From positions 1-7,789 of the forward strand of contig NMQN01000072.1 in assembly GCA_003575245.1 (NCBI GenBank): DNA of 7,789 nt, given 5' to 3'. Numbering within the stretch: position 1 is the stretch's first letter; every line of letters starts with the position of its first letter. The translations under genes and the position numbers were made by a program. Of the stretch, positions 1 to 7,789 are shown piece after piece. The notes beneath the pieces were generated by a model, which saw nothing but the letters and a program-made list of their open reading frames with translations, was not told where the DNA came from and did no database searches. Source of the stretch: Candidatus Atribacteria bacterium 1244-E10-H5-B2. GTDB lineage: Bacteria > Atribacterota > JS1 > SB-45 > 34-128.

Positions 1-95
1 TAGAGAAGCCCTGTTATATGTGTAGTAACTTCACAAAGATAGACAGTTTTATTTTTAAAATCAAATCCCACTACATCTAACTCATTTAACCCTTC
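1..95. repeat. Terminal direct repeat, left copy (circular overlap)
   Basis: These 95 bases are identical to the last 95 bases of the window (7695-7789). An exact end overlap of this size is what an assembler leaves on a circular molecule. A real direct terminal repeat of a linear phage-like genome would look the same. Circularity is favoured because joining 7694 to 1 completes a gene in frame with a start codon and ribosome binding site. Confidence 0.95.
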
Positions 96-200
96 AAGCC
101 CTCCAACGGGAGGCCTAACATTGTAATTAACAAAATCACATTTTTTGATAATCTTTAGATATGCACCTACAATATATTCCCCGATTCCAGTCTTTATCAT
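1..200 (-). CDS. PD-(D/E)XK-like nuclease, N-terminal part (gene continues at 7694)
   Basis: This is the 5' part of a 166-codon gene that crosses the circle join: complement of 7394-7694 joined to 1-200. It starts at ATG 198-200, with AAGGAG at 210-215 nine bases upstream. The N-terminal segment contains GEYIVGAYL (residues 7-15), then E40-L-D42 before a beta strand, then a second strand ending in C56-E57-V-T59. This order, a helix with Glu, then Asp, then E-x-K on a strand, is the core of the PD-(D/E)XK nuclease fold, as in YraN and Holliday-junction-resolvase-like proteins. Here the last position is Thr instead of Lys. A nuclease acting on element or helper DNA is inferred from the fold pattern only. 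The downstream neighbours are a 28-aa ORF and the large terminase, so a role near packaging is plausible. Confidence 0.75.
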   Translation of the reverse strand, partial: MIKTGIGEYIVGAYLKIIKKCDFVNYNVRPPVGGLEGLNELDVVGFDFKNKTVYLCEVTTHITGLL

Positions 201-272
201 CTTTCAATTCTCCTTCTTTTAAAATATCAAAGAAATAAAGCCCTTTTCGATAATTAAGTTAAAATAAGGCCT

Positions 273-320
273 TCAAATTTCGCTTTTAAGGAGGGTCAAA
301 TTCAAAATAGGTAATATCAT
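273..320 (-). CDS. Possible 15-aa leader peptide upstream of the nuclease gene
   Basis: The short ORF MILPILNLTLLKSEI starts at ATG 318-320. A strong purine-rich site, GAGGGGG, lies just upstream at about 326-332. It ends 72 bases before the nuclease start. Its coding strand contains CCTCCTT (289-295), which is complementary to the AAGGAG of the nuclease gene (210-215), so translation could affect access to that site. The peptide is hydrophobic and matches no family I know. The start signal is good, but the length makes chance possible. Confidence 0.35.
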   Translation of the reverse strand: MILPILNLTLLKSEI

Positions 321-340
321 AAGCGCCCCCTCAAAATTCC

Positions 341-369
341 CTCATATAAGCGATATATGAGCGTTTTTT
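341..369 (+). terminator. Hairpin with T-run, terminator-like on the plus strand
   Basis: CTCATATA (341-348) pairs with TATATGAG (354-361) around a five-base loop and is followed by CGTTTTTT. Read on the plus strand this is a small intrinsic terminator. On the minus strand, where the genes lie, no T-run follows, so the recombinase transcript can probably continue to the nuclease and terminase genes. No clear plus-strand promoter was found for a transcript that would end here. Confidence 0.4.
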
Positions 370-389
370 AAAATCAAGGAAAGCCTTTG

Positions 390-398
390 TTTATAACA
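390..398 (-). promoter_or_regulatory. Weak extended -10 promoter candidate
   Basis: Minus-strand TGTTATAAA (398 to 390) fits an extended -10 element (TGn followed by a TATAAT-like hexamer). No convincing -35 box lies 17 bases upstream. It sits just past the recombinase stop codon and could add transcription of the leader peptide, nuclease and terminase genes. Confidence 0.25.
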
Positions 399-410
399 GT
401 TACAGAGATT

Positions 411-1088
411 TTAGATTAATTTAACCTTCATTTTATTCTGAGGATGTAATCTATTAACTTCTTCTTTTTGTTTATCGCTAACTAATGAAGTGTAGATCTG
501 AGTAGAGGCCAAACTTTTATGGCCTAAAAAGCCCTGGATTCTCCGGATATCCATTCCATTATTTAAAAAATGTGTAGCAATCGAGTGCCTTAACATATGT
601 GGAGTTACCTTTTTATCTATCCCGGCCTCTACTCCGTATCTCTCGATATTCCTTTGAATATTCATTTTAGTTACCCTGGTCCCGGTCCTGCTCAAAAATA
701 AAGCCCTGCTCTTATTGCCTTTCCAAAGATTTCGAGCCTTTAAATAATTCTGCAATATCTTAATAGATTCGTTAGTTAGTGTAGCCTCACGTTCCCGGTT
801 ACCCTTACCCAATACCTTTGCGATTCCCCTTTTAAAATCGAGATCCTTTATATCTAAATTAATCAATTCTTTTAATCTGATCCCTGAGGAATAAAATAAA
901 TTCAGAATTGCATAATCTCTTTTAGCGGTAAATAATTTATTTCGAGATCTCTTTAGCCAGTAAGATTTATTTTGCCTTCTTTTCTTCAATTCCTCTTTAG
1001 CCTTTATTCCTTCCAGGTAAGGCCGGTTAAGTAAAAGTTCAATTTCTTCTATGCTAAGATACTTAGGAATCCTCTTTATTGCCTTCAT
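411..1088 (-). CDS. Tyrosine recombinase, catalytic domain only (Xer-like)
   Basis: This 225-aa enzyme has the full set of tyrosine recombinase residues: R71 (SGIR), K95 (GKG), H164-x-x-R167 (HMLR), H190 (GH) and the nucleophile Y199 (IYT). It should cut and rejoin DNA at specific sites through a 3'-phosphotyrosine link, for integration, excision or resolution of multimers. Usual XerC/D-like enzymes are near 300 aa, with an N-terminal SAM-like core-binding domain. Here the catalytic domain begins almost at residue 12, so that domain is missing, and a Lys/Arg-rich insert sits at residues 29-50. The start is ATG 1086-1088, with AGAGGTG six bases upstream. An in-frame GTG at 1097 falls inside that ribosome binding site and is rejected. 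The strong promoter at 1121-1149 and nearby repeats suggest dedicated control. Confidence 0.92.
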   Translation of the reverse strand: MKAIKRIPKYLSIEEIELLLNRPYLEGIKAKEELKKRRQNKSYWLKRSRNKLFTAKRDYAILNLFYSSGIRLKELINLDIKDLDFKRGIAKVLGKGNREREATLTNESIKILQNYLKARNLWKGNKSRALFLSRTGTRVTKMNIQRNIERYGVEAGIDKKVTPHMLRHSIATHFLNNGMDIRRIQGFLGHKSLASTQIYTSLVSDKQKEEVNRLHPQNKMKVKLI

Positions 1089-1120
1089 TTTAAACACCTC
1101 TTTTTAAATTTTATGTATAT

Positions 1121-1149
1121 AGTATATATGATAGATTATTTTCTGTCAA
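1121..1149 (-). promoter_or_regulatory. Strong sigma70-type promoter of the recombinase gene
   Basis: On the minus strand TTGACA (1149 to 1144) is followed by a 17-base spacer and TATACT (1126 to 1121). Transcription should begin near 1114, about 26 bases before the recombinase start codon. The -35 box overlaps one arm of an inverted repeat (1148-1160/1177-1189), so a bound repressor or the recombinase itself could block it. Confidence 0.85.
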
Positions 1150-1189
1150 GTGTTTTGTTACTTAATGCGTATTTTATAACGAAACACTT
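1148..1189. repeat. Inverted repeat upstream of the recombinase, candidate operator or recombination site
   Basis: AAGTGTTTTGTTA (1148-1160) and TAACGAAACACTT (1177-1189) are inverted 13-bp arms with one mismatch and 16 bp between them. The left arm overlaps the -35 box of the recombinase promoter. Further copies of the motif lie nearby: GTGTTTTGTTA at 1258-1268 and GTTTTGTTACT at 1406-1416. A 13-bp direct repeat, TATTTTATAACGA, occurs at 1170-1182 and 1213-1225. The set could be an operator or the arm and core sites of an attachment site. Confidence 0.5.
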
Positions 1190-1325
1190 AAAACATAAAA
1201 TCTAAAAATCCTTATTTTATAACGATTCCGGGATAAATATTTCTCTATATATTATTTGTGTTTTGTTATTATCCTTTAAAAAAGTTAGGTTTAAGGCTTT
1301 TAAGTGATCATTCTTAACCTTTCCC

Positions 1326-1397
1326 GAGTGGACTCGAAAATTTAAAAAGCCTTTTACACCTGATATTTTAGCCTTTTTAGGCTTTTCTGAGCCTTTT
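1326..1397 (-). terminator. Probable terminator region after the 59-aa gene
   Basis: On the minus strand AAAAGCCT (1386 to 1379) can pair with AGGCTTTT (1352 to 1345), followed by TTAAATTTT. A second short stem, AGGCT (1379-1383) with AGCCT (1390-1394) followed by TTTT, works on the plus strand. A perfect 12-bp palindrome, CGAGTGGACTCG, covers 1325-1336. The block separates the 59-aa gene from the recombinase promoter and could stop transcription both ways. Confidence 0.45.
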
Positions 1398-1575
1398 ATG
1401 ATTTCGTTTTGTTACTATTTAATGAATCCCTTCTATCCTGATTCATACTCTTAGTCTTAGCCCCTATGATTATATAAAAATCTCTCTCATCAATTTTTTC
1501 CTCTTTGACTGCATTAACTATCACCTGATAGAAATTATCGAATCTTTTTAAAAAATTTAATCGTTCCGGTAACAT
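1396..1575 (-). CDS. Small hypothetical protein, 59 aa
   Basis: I do not recognise this protein. It starts at ATG 1573-1575 after AAAAAGAGGCGATCTAA, a ribosome-binding leader that closely resembles those of three other genes in the window (starts at 2705, 3949 and 4188). That shared leader is the main reason to accept it as real. The first half is mixed helix and strand with a hydrophobic strand FYIII near residues 33-37. The tail, from about residue 40, is polar and rich in Asn, Ser, Lys and Arg. It has no Cys and no membrane segment. It is the last gene before a probable terminator, and it lies downstream of the candidate initiator and its repeats. Confidence 0.6.
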   Translation of the reverse strand: MLPERLNFLKRFDNFYQVIVNAVKEEKIDERDFYIIIGAKTKSMNQDRRDSLNSNKTKS

Positions 1576-1681
1576 TTAGATCGCCTCTTTTTAAAATTTT
1601 ATTTAACTAAACAAAAAGCGTATGTTCGCCCCCCTGAAATTTCCTCTTTTTATTTTCTCATCTCTCTAATCACTTTTTACC

Positions 1682-1710
1682 TTCAGAATTGACCCGTCGT
1701 AAAATATACT
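1682..1710 (+). promoter_or_regulatory. Weak plus-strand promoter candidate facing the repeat cluster
   Basis: TTCAGA (1682-1687), a 17-base spacer and TATACT (1705-1710) give a moderate sigma70 match. A transcript from about 1717 would run through the inverted repeats at 1769-1801 to a run of seven T at 1813-1819, giving a short RNA that opposes the direction of the initiator gene. This is an inference from one weak -35 box. Confidence 0.3.
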
Positions 1711-1759
1711 CTTAATTAAACACTTTTAGGAGATACACTCTACTAACCACTCTCTATAA

Positions 1760-1875
1760 GCCTACTAATGCTATCACCAGTGATAGCACCCTATGCTATC
1801 ATTTCGGGTCGCTTTTTTTCTAAAATCATAAAACTTGCGCGCCTACTAATGCTATCATTTCGGGTCGCTTTTTTT
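1760..1875. repeat. Iteron-like cluster of direct and inverted repeats
   Basis: Four copies of TGCTATCA lie here: 1769-1776, inverted at 1781-1788, 1794-1801 and 1850-1857. Larger units are also duplicated. A 27-bp sequence at 1793-1819 recurs at 1849-1875, and a 17-bp sequence at 1760-1776 recurs at 1841-1857. The first two TGCTATCA copies form a perfect 8-bp hairpin with a four-base loop. The second 27-bp copy includes the last codons and stop of the winged-helix gene. Repeats of this kind beside an initiator gene are typical of plasmid origins and their binding sites. Alternatives are an operator or a resolution site. Confidence 0.6.
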
Positions 1876-2373
1876 GAATTTTTTAGGTAAATATGGAGTA
1901 ATAAATATAATTTCCTTATCTGATATAGCTTTGATTTTCCCTTCTTTAATCAATAATTTATAGGCCGTATCCCACCTTAAAAGCGTTATAATTCGCCTCT
2001 TTGACTTTGGCCCCATTGAATATAGCCTTCTATTAATAAAATGATAAAATTCTAATCTCCTTAGAGATCTATCAATAGTTATTTTCGGTATCCCGGTTTC
2101 CTCAGTAATATCCGGATTTGTTTTTCTGGTATTTCTCCACCAACTACATTTACTTGACAAAAAGAAATAAATGTCTTTATCTTTAGCAGTAAGTTTAAAA
2201 AGCACCCTTGAATCTGTAAATCCTCTCGGTATAGGGTCGTATTGCTCTCTCTTTTCTTTAGGCAATAAATTGCCTTCATTATCATATAAACCGCTTTGAT
2301 TCAATTCCGGATAAAGATTTACCAGCGTCTTATCTTCGAGATCCATTTTTTCTTTAAATTCTTTTTTGTTCAT
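1855..2373 (-). CDS. Winged-helix DNA-binding protein, candidate replication initiator
   Basis: This 172-aa protein carries a winged-helix pattern at residues 59-133. A first helix is LTAKDKDIYFFLS. A helix-turn-helix follows around ITEETG and TIDRSLRRLEF (about 89-109), then a basic wing around NRRLYSMGPKSKRR. This layout resembles the DNA-binding domain of initiator proteins such as lambda O-type and plasmid Rep proteins, but there is no clear second enzymatic domain. The role as initiator is inferred from the fold, the iteron-like repeats at its 3' end and its structured leader. A transcriptional regulator is the alternative. The start is ATG 2371-2373 with AGAAAGGA nine bases upstream. 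An in-frame GTG at 2424 would add 17 residues but has only a poorly spaced GGGAG. The stop codon lies inside the duplicated 27-bp repeat. Confidence 0.65.
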   Translation of the reverse strand: MNKKEFKEKMDLEDKTLVNLYPELNQSGLYDNEGNLLPKEKREQYDPIPRGFTDSRVLFKLTAKDKDIYFFLSSKCSWWRNTRKTNPDITEETGIPKITIDRSLRRLEFYHFINRRLYSMGPKSKRRIITLLRWDTAYKLLIKEGKIKAISDKEIIFITPYLPKKFKKSDPK

Positions 2374-2379
2374 ATTACA

Positions 2380-2479
2380 AAATCCTTTCTTACCTGGCCA
2401 ACAGCTAAAGCGAAAGGATTTCACAAACTCCCTAACCGCCGGCCAGGCTAAAGCAAGTGAGATCGATTACCCACTTGCC
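2380..2479 (-). promoter_or_regulatory. Structured leader that can hide the initiator ribosome binding site
   Basis: On the minus-strand RNA, AAATCCTTTC (2421 to 2412) pairs perfectly over 10 bp with GAAAGGATTT (2389 to 2380), which contains the Shine-Dalgarno of the winged-helix gene. The 22-base loop holds GGCCAGG (2399 to 2393), which is complementary to CCTGGCC upstream (2447 to 2441), so a pseudoknot can form. A further 7-bp stem (2453-2459 with 2472-2478) lies before it. Control of initiator translation by RNA folding is the likely function. Confidence 0.6.
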
Positions 2480-2495
2480 GGATATCAAACATCAT
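2448..2495 (-). CDS. Possible 15-aa leader peptide of the initiator gene
   Basis: The ORF MMFDIRQVGNRSHLL starts at ATG 2493-2495, with AGGGG ten bases upstream. It ends with TAG at 2448-2450, directly next to the CCTGGCC arm (2441-2447) of the predicted pseudoknot. A ribosome that translates it would open the stem at 2453-2478 and cover the pseudoknot arm on stopping. Leader peptides placed like this control initiator synthesis in IncB and IncFII plasmids (repY, tap). The similarity is in arrangement, not in sequence. Its small size keeps confidence low. Confidence 0.4.
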   Translation of the reverse strand: MMFDIRQVGNRSHLL

Positions 2496-2505
2496 TCAAA
2501 TATAA

Positions 2506-2532
2506 CCCCTAATGTAAAATTTACCCCCTAAT
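2506..2532. repeat. Short direct repeat CCCCTAAT in the initiator leader
   Basis: CCCCTAAT occurs at 2506-2513 and again at 2525-2532, 19 bp apart. On the minus strand the lower copy supplies the AGGGG ribosome binding site of the 15-aa leader peptide. With only two copies, a binding-site role is speculative. Confidence 0.3.
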
Positions 2533-2567
2533 TTGCGTTTCTTTGACCTCTCTGGTATCTTTCTACC

Positions 2568-2705
2568 TTAATATTTATGAATTAACTTATTTAAGGCCTT
2601 TAATATTTCAAGTAGAAGGGATAACCTTAAATTTTCTGCCCGATCAACTACCTTTTTTATTTTTTCCTCAAAATCTTTAATCTCTTCAGTATCTTCAATT
2701 TTCAA
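2568..2705 (-). CDS. Small coiled-coil-like hypothetical protein, 45 aa, TTG start
   Basis: I do not recognise this protein. It starts at TTG 2703-2705 with AGAAAGGAG eight bases upstream, in the shared leader pattern GGAGCGAT-T-AAAT found before several genes here. The sequence is strongly helical: an acidic and Lys-rich N-terminal half (EDTEEIKDFEEKIKK), then a Leu-rich segment (RLSLLLEILKALNKLI, about residues 26-42) with hydrophobic residues spaced as in an amphipathic helix or short coiled coil. No Cys and no catalytic motif are present. It follows the 72-aa gene by 21 bases and lies upstream of the initiator leader, so it is probably co-transcribed with both. Confidence 0.6.
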   Translation of the reverse strand: MKIEDTEEIKDFEEKIKKVVDRAENLRLSLLLEILKALNKLIHKY

Positions 2706-2726
2706 TTTAATCGCTCCTTTCTGATA

Positions 2727-2945
2727 TTAATTTTTCCATTGGTCTATATAGATATTTTTCTTCTGTTCCAAAGGGATTTTATCCCATAAACCATTAATCC
2801 CTTTAGCCTCAATTTTACATATACCGCCAATATCCGGATAGGATCTCAACAGAATTTTCAGTTTTGGTATATGCTCTAAATCTTCCCAAAATTCGCTAAG
2901 CATTTTCTCAATTTCTTTTTTTGTCTTTAAATAGAAGAGATCCAT
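2727..2945 (-). CDS. Hypothetical protein, 72 aa
   Basis: I recognise no family. The preferred start is ATG 2943-2945, because AAGGGAG lies 11 bases upstream. The in-frame ATG at 2964-2966 adds seven residues but has no ribosome binding site, and its own codons form that AAGGGAG. The protein begins with a charged helix (FYLKTKKEIEKMLSEFWEDLEHI) and has a middle segment LKILLRSYPDIGGICKIEAKGINGLW, with one Cys, that may form strands. It follows the 66-aa gene closely (stop at 2970) and precedes the TTG-started 45-aa gene. It looks like one member of a chain of small accessory genes. Confidence 0.65.
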   Translation of the reverse strand: MDLFYLKTKKEIEKMLSEFWEDLEHIPKLKILLRSYPDIGGICKIEAKGINGLWDKIPLEQKKNIYIDQWKN

Positions 2946-2969
2946 AATAATTTTATCTCCCTTCATTTT

Positions 2970-3170
2970 TTAATTGATATATTTATACATAAAATGCTCA
3001 AATCTTTTCATCATTTCTTTAATATCTTCTTCGGTTAAAACTACATTATATTCTTCTTTGGCCACCCGGATTATTGTATCGTCTTTTAAATCTTTTCTGT
3101 CTTTCACATATAAAGAATAATTTCTCCGGATCGTGTGAAAAGCCTCGAATTTTTCTCTACTGATAAACAT
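2970..3170 (-). CDS. Hypothetical protein, 66 aa
   Basis: I do not recognise a family. The start ATG 3168-3170 has a strong AAAGGGGG site about 11 bases upstream. The protein is charged and probably all-helical. The order is FEAFHTIRRNYSLYVKDRKDL (about 8-28), a segment LKDDTIIRVAKEEYNVVLTEEDIKEMMKRFEHFM that looks like a small helix-turn-helix or helical hairpin (about 28-61), and a short polar end. The DDTIIRVAKEEYNV-x-LTEEDI stretch resembles a DNA-binding helix pair, but I would not assign it. It is the first gene after the 360-bp hairpin-rich stretch, so that stretch would be its 5' leader if transcription reads through. Confidence 0.65.
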   Translation of the reverse strand: MFISREKFEAFHTIRRNYSLYVKDRKDLKDDTIIRVAKEEYNVVLTEEDIKEMMKRFEHFMYKYIN

Positions 3171-3330
3171 AAAATTTTAATCCCCCTTTCGATTTTTTAT
3201 GATCCCGGTAGAATAACCAGGGGAAAGGATATATCAAGAGGCCAAACGAAAAAAATTCTCTTGATATAAATAAACCCTGATTACCCACCGGGTAAACCGG
3301 TCAACTGCCTGGCAGGGATTGACCGGGATA

Positions 3331-3364
3331 TTGATTTTACTTCCTATCGTATATATGCTAAAAT
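3331..3364 (+). promoter_or_regulatory. Plus-strand promoter candidate for a small RNA
   Basis: TTGATT (3331-3336), a 17-base spacer and TATGCT (3354-3359) fit a sigma70 promoter. An overlapping extended -10, TGCTAAAAT, is at 3356-3364. The start would lie near 3366-3371. The -35 and -10 parts are also the two arms of a 10-bp inverted repeat, so some of the match could come from that structure. Confidence 0.4.
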
Positions 3365-3365
3365 C

Positions 3366-3507
3366 AATTAGTCAGAAGTGGATTCTATAAAATCCATTAA
3401 AATTTTTTAGAAAAATGGTATATTAAAGATCGATGGTCTTATATCATTTTTCTGTTATCTACCGTGAAAGTTCGATTACAGGGGAGTTTAACCGCTCCCC
3501 TGTTTTC
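3366..3507 (+). ncRNA. Candidate plus-strand small RNA B
   Basis: A promoter candidate at 3331-3364 and an intrinsic terminator at 3478-3507 bound about 140 nt. Inside are a 6-bp stem (3379-3384/3391-3396), a long 14-bp stem with one G-U pair (3409-3422/3440-3453) whose loop contains AGATCG, and the terminator stem. Bases 3372-3385 can pair over 14 nt, with one G-U, with bases 4287-4300 of candidate RNA A. No long ORF fits this strand. The RNA is inferred from signals and structure only. The stretch could instead be the leader of the minus-strand 66-aa gene. Confidence 0.4.
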
Positions 3508-3510
3508 ATT
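3478..3510 (+). terminator. Intrinsic terminator on the plus strand
   Basis: ACAGGGGAG (3478-3486) pairs perfectly with CTCCCCTGT (3495-3503) around an eight-base loop and is followed by TTTCATTTTG. The T-rich tail is on the plus strand only, so it would end a plus-strand RNA and not the minus-strand 138-aa gene beside it. Confidence 0.55.
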
Positions 3511-3532
3511 TTGAGCCAACACTTTAAAATTT

Positions 3533-3808
3533 TTATTCTTCTTTTTTTTCAGGCTCTTCCGATTCGCTTTTACCCAAAGTCGCTAAAACCGCTTCTCTGT
3601 AAGTAACCTCAATTCCCTGGCCTTTACATTTTTCAATGTATTCTTCAACCTTCTTTTCTTCCGGAGTTAATTCTGCCTTATCAAGGCAAAATAATACCGC
3701 ATCACGATAACTAACTTCCGGATTTTCTTCAATATATTTTTCTACTTTTTCGAGATCCTGCTTCTCTTTTTCGAGATATTGCTCTTCGGTCATTTTTTCT
3801 TCGGTCAT
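3533..3808 (-). CDS. Probable nested product of the acidic gene, 91 aa
   Basis: Translation from the in-frame ATG at 3806-3808 (M48 of the longer protein) would give only the acidic, repeat-bearing part. AAAGGGGGGGAG sits just upstream with a short spacer, a stronger site than that of many genes here. Another Met follows at 3791-3793 (residue 53). Either this is a second start, or the two parts were once separate genes joined through the G-run. Confidence 0.4.
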   Translation of the reverse strand: MTEEKMTEEQYLEKEKQDLEKVEKYIEENPEVSYRDAVLFCLDKAELTPEEKKVEEYIEKCKGQGIEVTYREAVLATLGKSESEEPEKKEE

Positions 3809-3949
3809 CTTCTCCCCCCCTTTCAATTTATTAATAAATTCTATTATTTTTTCTACATCAATATCCTTTTGATCTGCCAGTTCGAGGATTTTTTTCGCTC
3901 CTGATCCAGTTAAATATTTTAAACGATATTCCTCTTTTATATCACTCAT
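3533..3949 (-). CDS. Acidic protein with an internal repeat and an internal start, 138 aa
   Basis: Function unknown. The start ATG 3947-3949 overlaps the stop of the upstream gene as ATGA, with AAAGGAG 11 bases upstream. The N-terminal 47 residues form a separate helical segment. The rest is highly charged, and two related units follow each other: VEKYIEENPEVSYRDAV (69-85) and VEEYIEKCKG-x-x-IEVTYREAV (101-121). The C-terminus is very acidic (SESEEPEKKEE). A run of seven G (C at 3814-3820) encodes KGGE and also forms a very strong ribosome binding site just before M48 (ATG 3806-3808). A second product of 91 aa is therefore likely, and it would be the part with the repeats. Nested starts of this kind occur in phage scaffold genes, but nothing else supports a scaffold role. 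Confidence 0.7.
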   Translation of the reverse strand: MSDIKEEYRLKYLTGSGAKKILELADQKDIDVEKIIEFINKLKGGEKMTEEKMTEEQYLEKEKQDLEKVEKYIEENPEVSYRDAVLFCLDKAELTPEEKKVEEYIEKCKGQGIEVTYREAVLATLGKSESEEPEKKEE

Positions 3950-4188
3950 AATTTAGATCGCTCCTTTCTTTCTTCGGATTCCTTTTTTCTCCTTTTTTTT
4001 TGGTAACCGGGATTCTTTTTTCTAAATCTTTTAAGATCCTTTTTTTGTGATTCCCTTAATATTGAATAGGCCTCAGGATCCTCGATTTTTAATTTTTGTA
4101 TATATTCTCTCCTAAATCCGTTAATTTCTTTACTAATTATCTTTAATTTTATTTTACCGCTAACGTTTATTTCACTTATTTTTTTCAA
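3946..4188 (-). CDS. Basic small hypothetical protein, 80 aa, TTG start
   Basis: I do not recognise a family. It begins at TTG 4186-4188 with AAGGGAG eight bases upstream. No better ATG exists nearby, and the leader GGGAGCGATCGAATTG matches that of three other genes. The C-terminal half is extremely basic (LKRFRKKNPGYQKKRRKK, about residues 52-69), which suggests nucleic-acid binding. A central IEDPEAYSILRE segment precedes it. Its stop overlaps the next start by ATGA, so it is translationally coupled to the acidic 138-aa gene. A basic and an acidic partner made together could form a complex, but that is inference. It is the first gene after the two candidate small RNAs. Confidence 0.65.
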   Translation of the reverse strand: MKKISEINVSGKIKLKIISKEINGFRREYIQKLKIEDPEAYSILRESQKKDLKRFRKKNPGYQKKRRKKESEERKERSKL

Positions 4189-4205
4189 TTCGATCGCTCC
4201 CTTAA

Positions 4206-4234
4206 TTGCTTATTCTCTTTCATTTTGATACAAT
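4206..4234 (+). promoter_or_regulatory. Plus-strand extended -10 promoter of candidate RNA A
   Basis: TTGCTT (4206-4211) is followed by 17 bases and TACAAT (4229-4234). TGA just before the -10 gives the extended -10 form TGnTACAAT. Start of transcription is expected near 4241. No protein gene lies downstream on this strand before the terminator at 4327-4365. Confidence 0.55.
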
Positions 4235-4240
4235 AAAAAA

Positions 4241-4365
4241 GGTTTCTCTGTTTTCACCTGGTAAAGAAGTTTTAATAACTCTTATGGAGTCCACTTCTGA
4301 TTAGGTAGAAAACGCATATCTTTATTAAAAGGGATTTTGATTTTCCGGTCAGGTCCCTTTTTTTT
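4241..4365 (+). ncRNA. Candidate plus-strand small RNA A, about 125 nt
   Basis: The segment has its own promoter and terminator and folds into nested stems. The outer stem pairs GTTTTC-ACCT (4250-4259) with AGGT-A-GAAAAC (4303-4313), ten pairs with one bulged A. The next pairs AGAAGT (4265-4270) with ACTTCT (4293-4298). The inner pairs ACTC (4278-4281) with GAGT (4287-4290). The terminator stem is AAAAGGGA (4327-4334) with TCCCTTTT (4354-4361), then a T-run. It matches no RNA family I know, including 6S and tmRNA. Bases 4287-4300 are complementary to candidate RNA B. Confidence 0.5.
4327..4365 (+). terminator. Intrinsic terminator of candidate RNA A
   Basis: AAAAGGGA (4327-4334) pairs with TCCCTTTT (4354-4361) around a 19-base loop, and the eight-T run 4358-4365 extends past the stem. 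On the minus strand the stem is followed by AATAAAG and has no T-run, so it acts on the plus strand. Confidence 0.65.
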
Positions 4366-4371
4366 ATTACC

Positions 4372-4427
4372 AAAAAAAGAAAAGACGTTGTCAAAGGCTA
4401 TTTATTTTAATAACTTCTAACAACGTC
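4372..4427 (-). terminator. Strong intrinsic terminator on the minus strand
   Basis: GACGTTGT (4427 to 4420) pairs with ACAACGTC (4391 to 4384), followed directly by TTTTCTTTTTTT (4383 to 4372). It would end the unit that begins at the zinc-ribbon gene and also the short RNA from the promoter at 4480-4508. A second sequence, GGCGTTG (4436 to 4430), can replace the upstream arm with one G-U pair, so an alternative fold is possible. Confidence 0.7.
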
Positions 4428-4473
4428 ATCAACGCCATAATAGCAAGTTCCGATATTCAGTTTTTTACCACAA
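4372..4473 (-). ncRNA. Candidate minus-strand small RNA C or attenuated leader, about 100 nt
   Basis: A very good promoter (4480-4508) should start RNA near 4473, and the terminator at 4372-4427 would end it after about 100 nt. The RNA has few other stems apart from the terminator and the competing CAACG repeat (4421-4427 and 4430-4436). If the terminator is leaky or regulated, the transcript continues to the 80-aa gene at 4188 and this segment is its leader. I see no match to a known riboswitch core. Confidence 0.45.
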
Positions 4474-4508
4474 ATATTAATTATACCAAAAAGATATAAA
4501 TTTTTCAA
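4407..4508 (-). CDS. Doubtful 33-aa ORF overlapping the promoter
   Basis: An ORF with a TTG start (4506-4508) has AAGGAG nine bases upstream and encodes a peptide containing INICGKKLNIGTCYYGVDDV, with two Cys. It overlaps the -35 box of the promoter at 4480-4508 and runs into the terminator stem. It could only be made from transcripts that begin upstream, in the zinc-ribbon operon. I list it because the start signal is good. Chance is quite possible. Confidence 0.25.
   Translation of the reverse strand: MKNLYLFGIINICGKKLNIGTCYYGVDDVVRSY
4480..4508 (-). promoter_or_regulatory. Very strong extended -10 promoter
   Basis: Minus-strand TTGAAA (4508 to 4503), a 17-base spacer and a perfect TATAAT (4485 to 4480), preceded by TGG, give both a near-consensus sigma70 promoter and an extended -10. 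It is the best promoter in the window. It feeds candidate RNA C and, past the terminator, the 80-aa and 138-aa genes. Confidence 0.85.
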
Positions 4509-4544
4509 GTTTTTATTCTCCTTCCCGGATCTACCATAATTTTT

Positions 4545-4793
4545 TTATTCTTTAAATATCTCTTTTAAGTTTTTATTAGCCTCATTAACTCCCTGGACAA
4601 AATTATCCCACTCCTCGAATTTAAAGCCACAAGAGGCCGAAACGTCTAAACTTGCAATATAAAGGCCTATCTCATCTTTTTCCAGTTCGCAACCCATCGC
4701 CAGGGATTCCCCGATCTTAGTTTCTGATAATAGAGTCTGCTTATCTTTTCCAAAAACCTTTACAAATCTCCTAAATTTACTTTTATTTTTCAT
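4545..4793 (-). CDS. Hypothetical protein, 82 aa
   Basis: I recognise no family. The start is ATG 4791-4793. The nearest ribosome binding site, AAGGAG, is about 14 bases upstream, which is long. The first 22 residues are basic (KNKSKFRRFVKVFGKDKQ). The middle holds CELEKDEIGLYIASLDVSA, which looks like two strands. The C-terminal third is helical and acidic (FEEWDNFVQGVNEANKNLKEIFKE). Two Cys (C35 and C55) are not spaced like a zinc site. It follows the 49-aa basic protein and is the last clear gene of the unit that starts at the zinc-ribbon gene. Confidence 0.65.
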   Translation of the reverse strand: MKNKSKFRRFVKVFGKDKQTLLSETKIGESLAMGCELEKDEIGLYIASLDVSASCGFKFEEWDNFVQGVNEANKNLKEIFKE

Positions 4794-4818
4794 AATTATT
4801 TTTTAATCTCCTTCCTAA

Positions 4819-4968
4819 TCACCATATCCGCCGGATTAATTTCCGGCCTATAATCTTGTTTTTCCCACGTCTTAAAATTTTACCTGGATCCCCACTTGTA
4901 ATAACCCGGACATCATTCGCCTGTCTGGCCAATTTATAAAGAAATGAAACGGTTTTACTCATTTTCAT
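4819..4968 (-). CDS. Small basic phage-type hypothetical protein, 49 aa
   Basis: The start ATG 4966-4968 follows AAAAAGGGGGG by 11 bases. A second in-frame ATG at 4960-4962 is a possible alternative. The sequence has the order KTVSFLYKLARQANDV, then SGDPGKILRRGKNK, then a very basic end IIGRKLIRRIW. Short basic proteins with an ANDV-like helix, a GKI or DPKKI segment and a GR-x-L end are common among unnamed genes of phages and integrated elements in Firmicutes. That resemblance is from memory of the pattern and gives no function. The charge suggests contact with nucleic acid. The gene is followed closely by the 82-aa gene. Confidence 0.65.
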   Translation of the reverse strand: MKMSKTVSFLYKLARQANDVRVITSGDPGKILRRGKNKIIGRKLIRRIW

Positions 4969-4997
4969 TTAATTGATTACCCCCCTTTTTAAATAGT

Positions 4998-5042
4998 CCT
5001 GCTCCCCTCAGAAATAAGGTTATTAAAAAGAAGAGGAGCAGG
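4998..5042. repeat. Inverted repeat CCTGCTCC in an intergenic gap
   Basis: CCTGCTCC (4998-5005) pairs with GGAGCAGG (5035-5042), and AATAA/TTATT (5013-5024) forms a small inner stem. It lies between the 82-aa gene ending at 5096 and the strong ribosome binding site of the 49-aa gene. No T-run follows on either strand, so it is not a clear terminator. It may be an RNA processing or stabilising stem. Confidence 0.4.
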
Positions 5043-5095
5043 GGATCGACAATCCAGGTCTGTTCTTTTAGTCCTTCCCGGATCACCGAAATATT

Positions 5096-5344
5096 TTAGT
5101 AACCTCTTTTATTCAAGAATACTGCTTTTCTATGAGCATAAGGAATAAATTTTTTATGTTTTTCTCTTTCCCGGTAATCTCGGGAATCTTCTTTTTCCTT
5201 AATAATTTTCTCGATAGATTTTAAAGCTAATAAATATTTAGATCTTTCGCTTTCGGTTAAACTTTCTTCTCTTTTTAATTTCCATAGATAAAATTTTTTT
5301 GTTTGTTCTAAACTTTTTAGTTTTATGTTATTGATTTTTTTCAT
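5096..5344 (-). CDS. Hypothetical helical protein, 82 aa
   Basis: I do not recognise a family. The start ATG 5342-5344 follows AAGGGGA by 11 bases, in a leader (GGGGATAATCGATTAAATG) very like that of the 49-aa gene. The protein is rich in Lys, Glu and Arg. It is probably one long amphipathic helix or a helical hairpin from about residue 10 to 60 (LEQTKKFYLWKLKREES, then ERSKYLLALKSIEKIIKEKE), ending in a basic aromatic tail IPYAHRKAVFLNKRGY. Such a tail suggests RNA or DNA binding. It lies 28 bases downstream of the zinc-ribbon gene and shares its promoter. Confidence 0.65.
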   Translation of the reverse strand: MKKINNIKLKSLEQTKKFYLWKLKREESLTESERSKYLLALKSIEKIIKEKEDSRDYREREKHKKFIPYAHRKAVFLNKRGY

Positions 5345-5372
5345 TTAATCGATTATCCCCTTAAAATTGATT

Positions 5373-5537
5373 CTAAGTTACCTTCTGAGCCTTCCGTTTT
5401 CTTTTTTTTCTAAAAAAAACTCTCCGGGATCCGATAAAATTACAGTATCTACACCAGTAATCATTTGTCTTTAACCTGGCATAAACATATCTACCATTAC
5501 ATTTAGGACAGACCGGGCTTTCCTTTTTTATCCTCAT
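5373..5537 (-). CDS. Zinc-ribbon protein, 54 aa
   Basis: This short ORF starts at ATG 5535-5537, with AGAAGGTGA six bases upstream, and ends at TAG 5373. It has two Cys pairs, C10-P-K-C13 and C29-R-Y-C32, with aromatic residues between (RYVYA and DYWC), the pattern of a zinc ribbon or zinc knuckle that folds around one zinc ion. The tail from residue 38 is extremely basic (RRVFFRKKRKRKAQK), which fits nucleic-acid binding. It is the first gene after a strong promoter and probably an early regulator or a DNA- or RNA-binding helper. The spacing resembles transposase-type and phage zinc fingers, but no specific family can be named. Confidence 0.8.
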   Translation of the reverse strand: MRIKKESPVCPKCNGRYVYARLKTNDYWCRYCNFIGSRRVFFRKKRKRKAQKVT

Positions 5538-5572
5538 ATATATCACCTTCTTTTAACACACATTTTTTAACA

Positions 5573-5601
5573 TATATAACACATCAAGAAATTATTGTCA
5601 A
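5573..5601 (-). promoter_or_regulatory. Strong sigma70-type promoter of the zinc-ribbon unit
   Basis: Minus-strand TTGACA (5601 to 5596), a 17-base spacer and TATATA (5578 to 5573) sit directly behind the terminase stop codon. The start would be near 5566, about 28 bases before the zinc-ribbon ATG. Direct repeats TAACACA at 5554-5560 and 5577-5583 flank the start and overlap the -10 box, so they may be operator half-sites. Confidence 0.8.
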
Positions 5602-5602
5602 A

Positions 5603-7297
5603 TTACCAGTCTCCCCTGGGAGTTTCACCACTTGCCCCTCCCCAATCCTCACCGGCCTCAGATTGCATTTCCTTATCATACTGAGAAGATAACCGCTTAC
5701 TCCGGCCCATCCTCATATCAGCTTTTACGTTATCGCTCATATCATCAAGCAGTTTTCCGGTATCCTCTTGTTCCCCTTCCCTGGTAGCCTCATAAATAGA
5801 CCCGGCAACAGCGTCTATTTCGTCAGCGTGGCCTTCCGGTCCTCTCTCGTGATAAATAGTTAATTGATTCGATTTACCATAAATAGCGATAGTATTTTTT
5901 AAACCGTTCTTTAAATCTGGCCGGTCCGGTAATTGTAATCTATCTTGAATCATTTTAGATTTTAAATTGACAAATACAACCGATAGAGAAGGCCTGATCA
6001 GAATTTCTAAATTTATCTTTTTAAAGCTATTCTCAACATATCCTTTGCTATATCTGTCTATTGAGGCCTCGTTTAGATGATAGGTTTTAGCAAGTATTTC
6101 GATATCATTTAAGATAATATCCAGGTCCTTCGTTTCCCAGGATCTAACAACATCAACAATCGCTATATCCCCTTCCTTATGTGATATAGCCAAAGCAAAG
6201 CGATCCCGGCCACTAAGCCCGGATTGGTCCAGGCCCAGGGAATATTTATATCCTGATTTATAGGTTAGATCTCCGCCCAGAGTAAAAGGTTTTTGTATTA
6301 GTTCAAAATTGAAAAAGGCTTCCAGTTTTTCGCTAAATTCTGCTTGAAATTCCCTTTTCCAGTTATTAATATCCCTGGCCTTTTCTTTATTTAAAAATTT
6401 TTGCGGTATTTCGGGATTGACAAAACGAGTATTCGCTTGAATAGTTAAACGTTCCTCAATCCGGAAGCCCTCATCAAAAAAGTTAAAAAATAACCCCTGC
6501 TTAGCGCCAGCGGTAGAGATCAGGAAAAGTTTATTAAATTCAAACTGCGATTGTCGAGGCCTCAGGCTATTAAAGATCGTTTCATCCTGTTTAACTCCCT
6601 CGAGTTTAAAGAAGGCAATTTCATCCATTATCAAAACACAAATAGGAATCCCTCTTAAAGCGGTAGAAGTGCAGGGACTCGATATAATTTTTACGCCATT
6701 TTTTAGGGTCAATTCAAGCTCGGTAGATCTCTTTATTAATCGCCTTAATACCGGAGAATTTTCTAACATCCTTAGACAATTTTTTCCGATAATCTGCTTG
6801 GCCTGGAGTTCCCGGGTCGCTATGATCACTACATAAGGATTTTCGCCTTTAGATACTTCTTTTTTCCATTTATCCCTGGTAGCCTCGTATAAGGCACAGA
6901 TCGAAACGAGAAAAGACTTTCCGGCCCTGGCACCTAAACAGGCAATCAGTTCTAACTTTTCCCTTCCCGGGATATATTTCCCCTTACCTTTAGTCAGGAT
7001 CTTAAATATTTTTAATTCCTCTTTGTCAAGCGGTAGGCCATATAAGGCTTTTAGAATAATTAACTGGACCGGCCTTTTTTCAAAGGATAGGCCTAAATAA
7101 TCGGAATCGGTAGCAAATTCAATTATATTTATTTTTTGTAGTTTCTTCTTAGCCTCTCGATATTTAATAGCCTCTGCTTTAGCTTCTTCCGGAGTCTTTT
7201 TTCTACCCCCTCGTTTTAGATTGGCCAAGCGCCTGGCCTCAGATTCCGGAGTATTACCCCGGTAAGATTCCGGAGTCCTTTTTTTATAGTAAGGCAT
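5603..7297 (-). CDS. terL: Phage terminase large subunit (TerL), 564 aa
   Basis: This is the DNA-packaging motor: an ATPase that drives DNA into a phage head and a nuclease that cuts the concatemer. The ATPase has Walker A G122-ARAGKS128, Walker B VLIMDE (D225, E226) and a coupling motif around LFLISTAG (257-264). The RNase H-like nuclease has acidic residues D357 (GLDQSG), D414 (ASIDRYSKG) and D492/D495 (HADEIDA). The length is normal and no part is broken. Residues 20-52 form an unusually basic extension (RRLANLKRGGRKKTPEE) before the ATPase, which could help bind DNA. The start is ATG 7295-7297 with AAGGTGG eight bases upstream. In-frame GTG codons at 7304-7309 lie inside that site and are rejected. 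The upstream 28-aa ORF stops within the same site, so translation is coupled. No small subunit, portal or capsid gene accompanies it. Confidence 0.95.
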   Translation of the reverse strand: MPYYKKRTPESYRGNTPESEARRLANLKRGGRKKTPEEAKAEAIKYREAKKKLQKINIIEFATDSDYLGLSFEKRPVQLIILKALYGLPLDKEELKIFKILTKGKGKYIPGREKLELIACLGARAGKSFLVSICALYEATRDKWKKEVSKGENPYVVIIATRELQAKQIIGKNCLRMLENSPVLRRLIKRSTELELTLKNGVKIISSPCTSTALRGIPICVLIMDEIAFFKLEGVKQDETIFNSLRPRQSQFEFNKLFLISTAGAKQGLFFNFFDEGFRIEERLTIQANTRFVNPEIPQKFLNKEKARDINNWKREFQAEFSEKLEAFFNFELIQKPFTLGGDLTYKSGYKYSLGLDQSGLSGRDRFALAISHKEGDIAIVDVVRSWETKDLDIILNDIEILAKTYHLNEASIDRYSKGYVENSFKKINLEILIRPSLSVVFVNLKSKMIQDRLQLPDRPDLKNGLKNTIAIYGKSNQLTIYHERGPEGHADEIDAVAGSIYEATREGEQEDTGKLLDDMSDNVKADMRMGRSKRLSSQYDKEMQSEAGEDWGGASGETPRGDW

Positions 7298-7302
7298 AAT
7301 TA

Positions 7303-7389
7303 TCACCACCTTAATTTATTGCCCGGATTATTTAAGATAAAATCGGCAATTATTTGGTAAATATTAATTATAAATTTCTTGATAGCCAT
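7303..7389 (-). CDS. Small coupled ORF upstream of the terminase, 28 aa
   Basis: The ORF starts at ATG 7387-7389, four bases after the nuclease stop codon (7394-7396), and its ribosome binding site AAAAGGGGGCGG lies inside the end of the nuclease gene. Its stop TGA (7303-7305) lies in the ribosome binding site of the terminase gene. The peptide is mostly one hydrophobic amphipathic helix (IKKFIINIYQIIADFIL) with a short polar end. Both gene junctions are tight, so it is probably translated. It may serve mainly to couple translation from the nuclease to the terminase. I recognise no family. Confidence 0.55.
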   Translation of the reverse strand: MAIKKFIINIYQIIADFILNNPGNKLRW

Positions 7390-7393
7390 AGGA

Positions 7394-7789
7394 TCACCGC
7401 CCCCTTTTTAAATGTTCTAATATCTGAAGCACCCTGAAAAATGGATTCCCAAAATCATTAGTCAATTCTTTTGCCTTTACCTTCAATTCTTCTATACATT
7501 GGGTATATTCCTCATTAATTATTATTTCCAACCCCTCGATCTTCTCGAGTTCCCCGGTAATATATCCTTTAGAGACCACAGGAGACCAAAACATAAAACG
7601 TCTTTTTAGAAAACCTGAGAGATATTTGTTAGCATATTCTTTTTGTCTTTTATATTTTTGCTTTATCTTTTCGATAGTAATTTTATTATTCACATAGAGA
7701 AGCCCTGTTATATGTGTAGTAACTTCACAAAGATAGACAGTTTTATTTTTAAAATCAAATCCCACTACATCTAACTCATTTAACCCTTC
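7394..7789 (-). CDS. PD-(D/E)XK-like nuclease, main part (gene begins at 200 across the join)
   Basis: On the circle this gene runs from ATG at 198-200 down to 1, continues at 7694 and ends at TGA 7394-7396, giving 166 aa. Within the linear window it seems to begin at GTG 7765, but that codon is Val44 of the complete protein and has no ribosome binding site. The catalytic core lies around E40, D42, E57 and T59. The C-terminal half is helical and basic (KIKQKYKRQKEYANKYL, 77-92), followed by FMFWSPVV and an end GNPFFRVLQILEHLKRGR. Homologues of this general look, with GLEGL-x-ELDVVG and CEVTTH segments, occur as unnamed proteins in many bacteria and mobile elements, to my recollection. The stop is four bases from the next start, so it forms an operon with the 28-aa ORF and terL. 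Confidence 0.75.
   Translation of the reverse strand, partial: EGLNELDVVGFDFKNKTVYLCEVTTHITGLLYVNNKITIEKIKQKYKRQKEYANKYLSGFLKRRFMFWSPVVSKGYITGELEKIEGLEIIINEEYTQCIEELKVKAKELTNDFGNPFFRVLQILEHLKRGR
7695..7789. repeat. Terminal direct repeat, right copy
   Basis: This is identical to bases 1-95. One of the two copies should be removed to obtain the circular sequence of 7,694 bp. It lies wholly inside the nuclease gene, so counting both copies would falsely split that gene into two partial ORFs. Confidence 0.95.

What the first reader, a model, noticed from the sequence alone, without database searches (positions are those of the whole stretch)
1..7789. A 7.7-kb circle with its own large terminase but no capsid, portal or small terminase: candidate minimal phage satellite
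The ends overlap by 95 bp, and the join restores a complete gene, so the element appears complete. It encodes a recombinase, a likely initiator, a nuclease and an intact TerL, and otherwise only small proteins. Known satellites usually lack TerL (SaPI-like islands redirect the helper enzyme with their own TerS), or, if they carry TerL, carry head genes as well (capsid-forming PICIs). TerL alone on a tiny circle suggests a different hijacking strategy, in which the element brings the motor and the helper supplies portal and head. One of the unnamed small basic proteins, or the basic N-terminus of TerL, could replace TerS. A defective phage deletion product is the alternative.
Basis: partly seen in the sequence, partly recalled or inferred. 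Interest (0 to 1): 0.75.

Follow-up and report, generated by a model that had tools for sequence, protein, structure and literature searches.

The report
Minimal phage satellite with borrowed motor
A 7.7-kb circular DNA element, probably from sediment bacteria, carries one phage packaging motor and a copy of a phage assembly-protein tail but no shell or portal genes, so it most likely spreads inside particles made by another phage.

Summary
The 95-bp ends are identical, the join restores a 166-aa ORF, TerL keeps its catalytic residues, and no capsid or portal was recognised. It is unlikely to be a one-off deletion. Ten circles (7.6-11.5 kb) linked by shared genes carry TerL in 10, a major capsid protein in 8, a recognised portal in 0. 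The window and L012 are the capsid-less two. They share a replicon (putative Rep plus three iterons) but their TerLs are only about 26% identical.

Two findings suggest a mechanism. (1) The window's 138-aa protein repeats a 35-aa unit that ends the head protease of a phage clade (47 of 50 loci). The closest published parallel is SaPI CpmB, which shares a terminal motif with its helper's scaffold. (2) In that clade four TerL families carry one C-terminal tail, the region that binds portal in P22, T3 and lambda. L012's TerL has this tail motif near its end. The window's tail is another type, not found in any phage held.

Best reading: an autonomously replicating satellite bringing its own motor and a scaffold mimic, while a helper supplies portal, coat and tail. 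Helper dependence and host (probably Atribacterota) are inferred. New variant of a known kind.

The parts
1..95 (.). first copy of the 95-bp end overlap (identical to 7695-7789); circle of 7,694 bp
7695..7789 (.). second copy of the 95-bp end overlap
5603..7309 (-). TerL, 568 aa, ATPase and nuclease residues conserved; C-terminal tail (about residues 525-568) of a type also seen on TerLs with a much more divergent body
3533..3949 (-). 138-aa acidic protein with two tandem copies of the phage head-protease C-terminal unit; candidate scaffold mimic
3946..4188 (-). 80-aa basic protein directly upstream of the scaffold mimic; homologue beside the mimic in L012, and another in L105
1855..2424 (-). 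putative Rep: winged-helix initiator (conserved part starts at the ATG at 2373); winged-helix matches weak
1576..1875 (-). putative iteron origin downstream of Rep: three TGATAGCAT copies; the frame around the iterons is conserved in L012 and L013 while the iteron letters differ
1396..1575 (-). 59-aa conserved protein of the replicon (79% in L012, 66% in L102, 40% in L013)
411..1097 (-). XerC-like tyrosine recombinase, 228 aa
7394..7789 (-). 166-aa ORF across the join (continues at 1-200); possible PD-(D/E)xK nuclease by eye only
3..200 (-). N-terminal part of the same join-spanning ORF
5373..5546 (-). 57-aa basic zinc-ribbon protein just downstream of TerL
   Evidence: several sub-threshold zinc-ribbon hits
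5096..5344 (-). 82-aa protein; homologue just upstream of TerL in L012 (49-54%)
2727..2966 (-). 79-aa protein; homologue in L012 (46%)

Best explanation
The window is a complete, autonomously replicating phage satellite. Shown by sequence: a closed 7.7-kb molecule; a putative Rep beside three iterons; a XerC-like recombinase; a conserved TerL under purifying selection; a 138-aa protein built of repeats of a unit that ends the head protease of a phage clade; no recognised capsid or portal. Inferred: Rep and iterons maintain it as a plasmid-like circle. When a helper phage (one whose head protease ends in that unit, such as the L005/L106 clade) makes proheads, the satellite's TerL docks on the helper portal through its C-terminal tail and pumps satellite DNA. 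The 138-aa protein competes with the helper's own scaffold tail for coat protein and so adapts or captures the shell. The helper supplies coat, portal and tail. Other circles of the group use the same plan with a different TerL, a different tail, and usually their own coat protein.
For: (a) Ten closed circles linked by shared genes: TerL 10 of 10, MCP 8 of 10, recognised portal 0 of 10 (window). Three portal families gave 0 of 9 circle records; PF06074 was found in 4 of 4 phage records of the L005 clade in the same search. (b) The second capsid-less circle, L012, shares Rep (80%), the 59-aa protein (79%), four small proteins and the iteron frame, but has another TerL. (c) The 42-aa unit ends the head protease in 47 of 50 phage loci (35 distinct ends; two others are cut short, one distant relative lacks it). 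A profile of those ends, run over six-frame ORFs of the window and L001-L092, has three hits above the inclusion threshold: L005 (itself in the profile), the window's 138-aa protein (two copies, E 9e-20) and L012's 217-aa protein (E 7e-16); next is E 0.22. The five MCP circles in that set lack it. (d) TerL tails are exchanged: four phage TerL families end in the same IEGxxAGxRxxxxQ[DN]W tail beside portals 64-86% identical to L005's; TerL pairs with bodies 27% identical share tails (42 of 51, 30 of 37). L012's TerL carries the tail motif 16 residues before its end (E 6e-5, best non-phage hit). (e) The TerL C-terminus binds portal in P22, as reported for T3 and lambda (PMC5290284, passages); CpmB shares its C-terminal RIIK motif with the helper scaffold and binds coat at the same site (PMC6893505, passages).
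Against: No helper has been shown; no reads, virion DNA or host link are available. The window's own TerL tail is not detected by the phage-tail profile, its direct comparison with L012's tail is not above shuffles (34 against a maximum of 48), and no phage with its tail was found among the loci held, so the tail argument is direct for L012 and only indirect for the window. The scaffold role is by analogy; the unit may do something else at the protease end. Only two capsid-less circles are available as DNA. The portal test may miss divergent portals: the phage-like record L101 (tail genes, 17.3 kb) also gave no portal hit, and PF05133 hit none of the 14 records. No TerS or packaging site was identified.
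Confidence: 0.62

Rival explanations
1. Plasmid with an anti-phage function: TerL (decoy motor) and the scaffold-tail repeat protein poison the assembly of infecting phages, and the circle is not packaged.
For: The replicon looks plasmid-like (Rep, iterons), and a tail mimic plus a motor could block assembly without being packaged. TerL genes also lie on plasmids such as Komagataeibacter pKNA06.
Against: TerL keeps its ATPase and nuclease residues and low dN/dS, which a decoy would not need. Eight of ten related circles also carry a coat protein, which points to packaging.
Confidence: 0.15
2. Defective phage: a deletion product of a larger phage that kept TerL, replication and recombinase genes.
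For: TerL and small phage-like genes without structural genes is what a deletion would leave; the TerL is 54% identical to that of phage L005.
Against: A second circle with the same layout but another TerL; of the 68 contigs of 5 kb or more among the 120 best TerL homologues, 26 are 7-9 kb; the 138-aa protein is a separate family of 47 clusters, and 9 of its 14 contigs of 5 kb or more are 7.3-8.1 kb; origins with element-specific iterons.
Confidence: 0.06
3. One segment of a multipartite or obligately co-transmitted phage system, in which circles of the group carry complementary genes and are packaged together.
For: Circles share replicon parts while TerL, coat and scaffold genes are spread unevenly; by record name some come from the same sample (L004 and L102 both 3300031368; L001 and phage L113 both 3300032020).
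Against: No portal or tail gene was recognised in any of the ten circles, so they could not complement each other to a full virion; every circle carries its own TerL.
Confidence: 0.07
4. Satellite as above, but the 138-aa protein plays no part in capsid assembly and has a regulatory or other role.
For: The scaffold reading rests on sequence likeness of a short helical repeat and no binding data.
Against: The unit sits at the very end of the phage protease in 47 of 50 loci and was found in no other ORF of the window and L001-L092 above the inclusion threshold except the capsid-less circles' proteins.
Confidence: 0.2

Closest known systems
Capsid-forming PICIs (cf-PICIs)
   Same: Small satellite that encodes TerL; helper needed for the rest of the particle.
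   Different: cf-PICIs encode coat, protease, portal, connectors, both terminase subunits and HNH (PMC10690885, passages); here no coat, portal or TerS was recognised, and the element looks plasmid-like.
SaPI1-type PICIs (CpmAB, TerS)
   Same: CpmB shares the C-terminal motif of the helper scaffold (PMC6893505, passages), as the 138-aa protein appears to do with a phage protease end.
   Different: SaPIs redirect the helper's TerL with their own TerS; here TerL itself is carried. By eye the RIIK motif of CpmB is absent from the 138-aa protein; no homology to CpmB was tested.
SaPIbov5 (Ccm)
   Same: A satellite-encoded coat homologue reshapes the helper capsid (PMC6893505, passages); the MCP-bearing circles L001-L004, L013, L102, L103 and L105 could work so.
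   Different: Those circles also bring TerL; the window has no coat homologue.
P4-like satellites
   Same: P4 can exist as a plasmid (PMC7552001, start of abstract in the listing) and has its own size-determining scaffold, Sid, for helper coat.
   Different: P4 uses the helper's terminase (PMC10690885, passages); no Sid or Psu family hit among the ten window ORFs scanned.
Small circular gut contigs without a major capsid gene (Luque and co-workers 2020)
   Same: Seven closed small genomes with a phage hallmark gene (portal or TerL) but no major capsid protein annotated; satellites were one suggestion (PMC7762592, passages).
   Different: In the passages seen no mechanism or family was described; whether any is related to this window was not tested.
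PICMI, VEIME and tycheposon marine satellites
   Same: Minimal satellites; some VEIMEs lack integrase (PMC10690885, passages).
   Different: The word terminase does not occur in the PICMI paper's main text and no terS homologue was found there; its DNA is packaged as concatemers (PMC10803314, passages). The VEIME and tycheposon source papers were not seen.

Membership tests
Phage satellite (general) | Lacks structural genes needed for its own particle | tested here: met
   No capsid or portal hit among ten ORFs scanned; no ORF other than TerL above 228 aa
Phage satellite (general) | Encodes functions that divert helper packaging or assembly | tested here: inconclusive
   TerL and scaffold-tail repeat protein found by sequence; function not tested
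Phage satellite (general) | Transfer depends on a helper phage | not testable with these tools
   no reads, virion fraction or culture
cf-PICI | Encodes coat, portal, protease and both terminase subunits | tested here: not met
   Only TerL found
PICI / SaPI | TerS or Rpp redirecting the helper terminase, no own TerL | tested here: not met
   TerL present; no TerS hit in Pfam or PHROGs among ten ORFs
PICI / SaPI | Integrated in the chromosome next to int with flanking att sites | tested here: inconclusive
   Window is a closed circle with a XerC-like recombinase; no integrated copy of this element seen; a distant relative is integrated at tRNA-Arg
SaPI CpmB-type redirection | Small helical protein sharing the C-terminal motif of the helper scaffold | tested here: inconclusive
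   Two copies of a phage protease C-terminal unit; helical model of modest confidence, mean pLDDT 69.6, pTM 0.43. That this phage clade is the helper is inferred; RIIK motif absent by eye
P4-like | Sid, Psu and P4-type primase | tested here: not met
   No such hits among ten window ORFs
Plasmid with iteron replicon | Rep gene with adjacent repeated iterons | tested here: met
   Three copies next to Rep in the window, L012 and L013; 0 of 1000 shuffles reach three copies in each, with repeat lengths chosen after seeing the repeats. Replication itself not tested

The most novel reading that the evidence does not exclude
A group of portal-less circular satellites hijacks phages by wearing their parts: each TerL carries an exchangeable C-terminal adaptor that fits the portal of a particular helper group, so unlike motors can be plugged onto the same portal. 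In the most reduced members (the window and L012) a repeat protein copies the helper's scaffold tail to recruit its coat. This 'own motor plus borrowed docking tails' strategy would be a new way of parasitising phages, carried by autonomously replicating plasmid-like elements in Atribacterota.
Probability: 0.42. Interest if true: 0.85.

Novelty: new variant of a known kind. Interest (0 to 1): 0.72.

Why it matters
The satellites described in the papers seen redirect the helper's motor or bring a whole head. An element that brings only the motor would fill a gap, and the exchange of TerL C-terminal tails between TerL families gives a natural data set on what makes a motor fit a portal. It also suggests a way to link satellites to helper phages by tail sequence alone. 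The likely host phylum (Atribacterota, inferred from names of related proteins) is little studied in this respect: two paper searches returned only a database paper and a software paper.

Tried and rejected
Own-genome search: no genome is held for the window. Order- and class-level searches found the TerL family only in the genomes already known (1 of 161; 1 of 40). An MCP-profile scan brought in 79 loci beyond L013 (L014-L092); as held, none is closed and none carries the window's TerL type (several are pieces cut from longer contigs). A Rep-profile scan and an origin-pattern scan found no circles beyond L012 and L013. The Rep model (mean pLDDT 71.6) gave only generic winged-helix matches, none at E <= 0.001. 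A direct tail comparison of window and L012 TerL is not above shuffles (score 34, shuffle maximum 48), and window against L005 likewise (27 against 49), so I do not claim that the window's tail is the phage tail. P0006, a TerL 85% identical to the window's, ends in RRPTADQDW (E 0.063, weak). No TerS was identified: HTH_17 or ribbon-helix-helix proteins sit beside TerL in most relatives, a zinc ribbon in the window; a role as TerS is speculation. Considered unlikely: assembly chimera or deletion product (recurrent layout); ordinary phage (no structural genes). Against a single host phylum: a 55%-identical TerL with the tail motif lies on a 4-kb contig of an Actinomycetota genome bin (L009). Dropped or missed rows: in the contig-length tally for the 138-aa family one value of 47 (2,348 bp) was left out by oversight, which does not change the 7-9 kb count. 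The tallies for TerL and Rep use the listed hits only (120 of 242 and 120 of 167). The tree used the 68 listed homologues on contigs of 5 kb or more plus 10 rows from loci; its long-branch outgroup is unreliable. Alignment A1 holds the window and 42 of the 120 listed homologues.
Full report
WHAT IS THERE. The window is a closed 7,694-bp molecule with a 95-bp exact end overlap. All 12 ORFs kept by the ORF routine lie on the minus strand. In order around the circle from the join: a 166-aa ORF restored by the join, TerL (5603-7309), a 57-aa zinc-ribbon protein, several small proteins, an 80-aa basic and a 138-aa acidic protein (3946-4188, 3533-3949), more small proteins, putative Rep (1855-2424), an iteron region, a 59-aa protein, and a XerC-like recombinase (411-1097; TIGR02224 187 bits, below its cut-off of 335). 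No tRNA. Ten ORFs were scanned and no capsid or portal family was hit.

TERL. It matches PHROG terminase large subunit (E 1e-20). A search of 5.8 billion proteins gave 242 relatives, 120 listed; where a source names them, the names are mostly 'subsurface metagenome' or 'Candidatus Atribacteria bacterium 1244-E10-H5-B2' (phylum Atribacterota). Catalytic residues are conserved in the 43 sequences aligned. dN/dS is 0.08 and 0.16 against L001 and L002 with dS near saturation, and cannot be had against L003. Of the 120 listed relatives, 68 lie on contigs of 5 kb or more, 26 of these being 7-9 kb and 9 being 12 kb or more, as would be expected if many are whole small circles.

A GROUP OF CIRCLES. 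Related loci in IMG/VR gave nine more closed records: L001, L002, L003, L004, L012, L013, L102, L103, L105. Sizes are 7.6-11.5 kb. All ten, window included, carry a TerL. Eight carry a major capsid protein: HK97 type PF05065 in L001, L002 and L004 by Pfam, in L003 by PHROG, and in L013 by 34-36% identity to those; Phage_cap_E in L105 by Pfam and in L102 and L103 by 76% and 68% identity to it, with a gp46-like scaffold. The window and L012 carry none. No portal was found in the nine records with PF06074, PF04860 or PF05133, whereas PF06074 found the portal in 4 of 4 records of the L005 phage clade. The test has limits: the phage-like L101 record, with tail genes, also gave no portal hit, so a divergent portal could be missed. 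The remaining long ORFs of the circles look like helicases or primases by family or by eye, except L103's 314-aa and L013's 273-aa ORFs, which have no hit; L001's 523-aa ORF has no hit either and is called a helicase only from a Walker-type motif seen by eye.

REPLICON. Rep has 167 relatives. Between Rep and the 59-aa gene the window, L012 and L013 each hold three copies of an element-specific repeat in a conserved frame; 0 of 1000 dinucleotide shuffles gave three copies in each case, with repeat lengths chosen after seeing the repeats. This is the anatomy of an iteron plasmid origin in which Rep and iterons change together (inference). L012 matches the window in Rep (80%), the 59-aa protein (79%), and the 79-, 80-, 82- and 138-aa proteins; its recombinase is only 27% identical, its TerL is of another family, and an HNH protein sits near its recombinase. 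The element is therefore a frame with exchangeable slots.

A SCAFFOLD-TAIL MIMIC. The 138-aa protein is built of about 35-aa repeats (EEKKVEEYIEK...VTYREAVLATL). Its family has 47 clusters, the window's own included, and 9 of its 14 contigs of 5 kb or more are 7.3-8.1 kb. The same unit is the extreme C-terminus of the head maturation protease of phage L005. Searching with that protease gave a phage clade (50 loci with L005, contigs up to 38 kb) with a Mu-type portal, protease, a 302-aa putative coat protein (by position; no family search made) and, by position and size, tail genes. In 47 of 50 the protease ends in this unit (35 distinct ends); two are cut before the end and one distant relative, L154, lacks it. 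A profile of these ends, run over six-frame ORFs of the window and L001-L092, has three hits above the inclusion threshold: L005 (itself in the profile), the window's protein (two copies, E 9e-20) and L012's (E 7e-16); the next is E 0.22. It also hits 46 of the 47 proteins of the 138-aa family. MCP-bearing L001-L004 and L013 have none; L102, L103 and L105 were fetched later and were compared only by BLAST (no hit). AlphaFold2 gives helical hairpins at modest confidence. In SaPI1 the protein CpmB shares its C-terminal motif with the helper scaffold and binds coat at the same site, and in P2 the scaffold is part of the protease (PMC6893505, passages). The likeness in layout is close; the function is inferred.

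EXCHANGED TERL TAILS. In that phage clade, portals 64-86% identical to L005's (42% in distant L154) go with TerLs of four families that do not find each other by BLASTP at 1e-5: L106-type (3 loci), L115-type (11), L013-type (13) and window-type (L005 alone) (28 loci with a TerL, not counting L154, and 21 loci without one in the stretch held). All 28 end in IEGxxAGxRxxxxQ[DN]W or a close variant. The C-terminus of TerL binds portal in P22, as reported for T3 and lambda (PMC5290284, passages). A profile of 18 of these tails finds, outside the phages, as its six best hits stretches near the C-termini of TerLs: L012 (E 6e-5), P0101, P0038, P0095, L009 and P0006 (E 0.063); in all but P0006 the motif lies 15-25 residues before the end. 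The next hit is at E 0.31. Other tails are exchanged too: P0031 and L013 share 42 of 51 tail residues over bodies 27% identical, and P0072 and L102 share 30 of 37 over bodies 27% identical. The window's tail is shared with P0074 (43 of 59 residues, body 254 of 497) and with P0059 and P0083, but it is not found by the phage-tail profile, and no phage with it was found among the loci held. For the window the docking argument therefore rests on its relatives.

INTEGRATED RELATIVES. In a Phycisphaerales genome an island of about 11.9 kb lies between 53-nt repeats (96% identical), one of which overlaps a tRNA-Arg, with integrase, DnaB-like helicase and a 43%-identical TerL; no coat or portal was seen among the ORFs scanned. 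A second TerL lies in the next, cut-off island (L010). TerL-bearing islands without recognised head genes thus occur outside this group. Komagataeibacter plasmid pKNA06 carries a 27%-identical TerL next to a DUF2213 protein, with no capsid or portal gene annotated in the stretch seen (22.6 of 25.8 kb).

READING. A satellite that brings its own motor and a scaffold mimic and takes portal, coat and tail from a helper explains this with the fewest assumptions. Shown: circle, gene content, conservation, shared tails. Inferred: helper dependence, portal docking, coat binding, host. In the searches made (listings, abstracts and passages) I saw no description of TerL-only satellites with exchanged tails; a 2020 paper mentions small closed gut contigs with TerL or portal but no coat gene and names satellites as one explanation (PMC7762592, passages).

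Noticed in passing
L106-L154 and L005, TerL C-termini: Four TerL families carry the same C-terminal tail beside closely related portals; a candidate portal-fit module that moves between motors.
   Followed up: yes
L010 (Phycisphaerales MAG) 3599-21545: Two TerL-bearing islands in tandem after a tRNA-Arg, with helicase or primase genes and, in the first, an integrase; no coat or portal among the ORFs scanned; the second is cut by the contig end.
   Followed up: partly
P0032 and P0093 (names ES702_00338 and ES702_00348, both longest contig 27,671 bp): By name and contig length, two TerLs of this family about ten genes apart on one contig: possibly a tandem array of elements.
   Followed up: no
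window 3369-3408 and 4264-4303: A 40-nt inverted repeat (78% complementary) flanks the genes of the 80-aa and 138-aa proteins; could be paired operators or an invertible cassette.
   Followed up: partly
P0242: The window's 138-aa protein is listed with a longest contig of 8,005 bp, not 7,789: perhaps another assembly of the same circle.
   Followed up: no
L100, Rhodococcus qingshengii pDJL3: 15.9-kb circular plasmid with a terminase gene and a tail tape measure gene but no capsid in a gene table that may be incomplete.
   Followed up: no
L001, L002, L009, L012, L102-L105, gene next to TerL: A small HTH_17-type protein sits directly downstream of TerL in most relatives, by family or by likeness to one another (ribbon-helix-helix in L003 and L004; zinc ribbon in the window): candidate packaging-site reader.
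   Followed up: partly
window 4819-4968 and L105 1295-1450: A roughly 50-aa basic protein (FLYxLARxAND...SGDPxKI...IGRKLIRxIW) looks shared between the window and L105 by eye.
   Followed up: no
L101 (17.3-kb record): Phage-like record with TerL, scaffold, Phage_cap_E coat, tape measure and tail protein but no hit to three portal families.
   Followed up: partly
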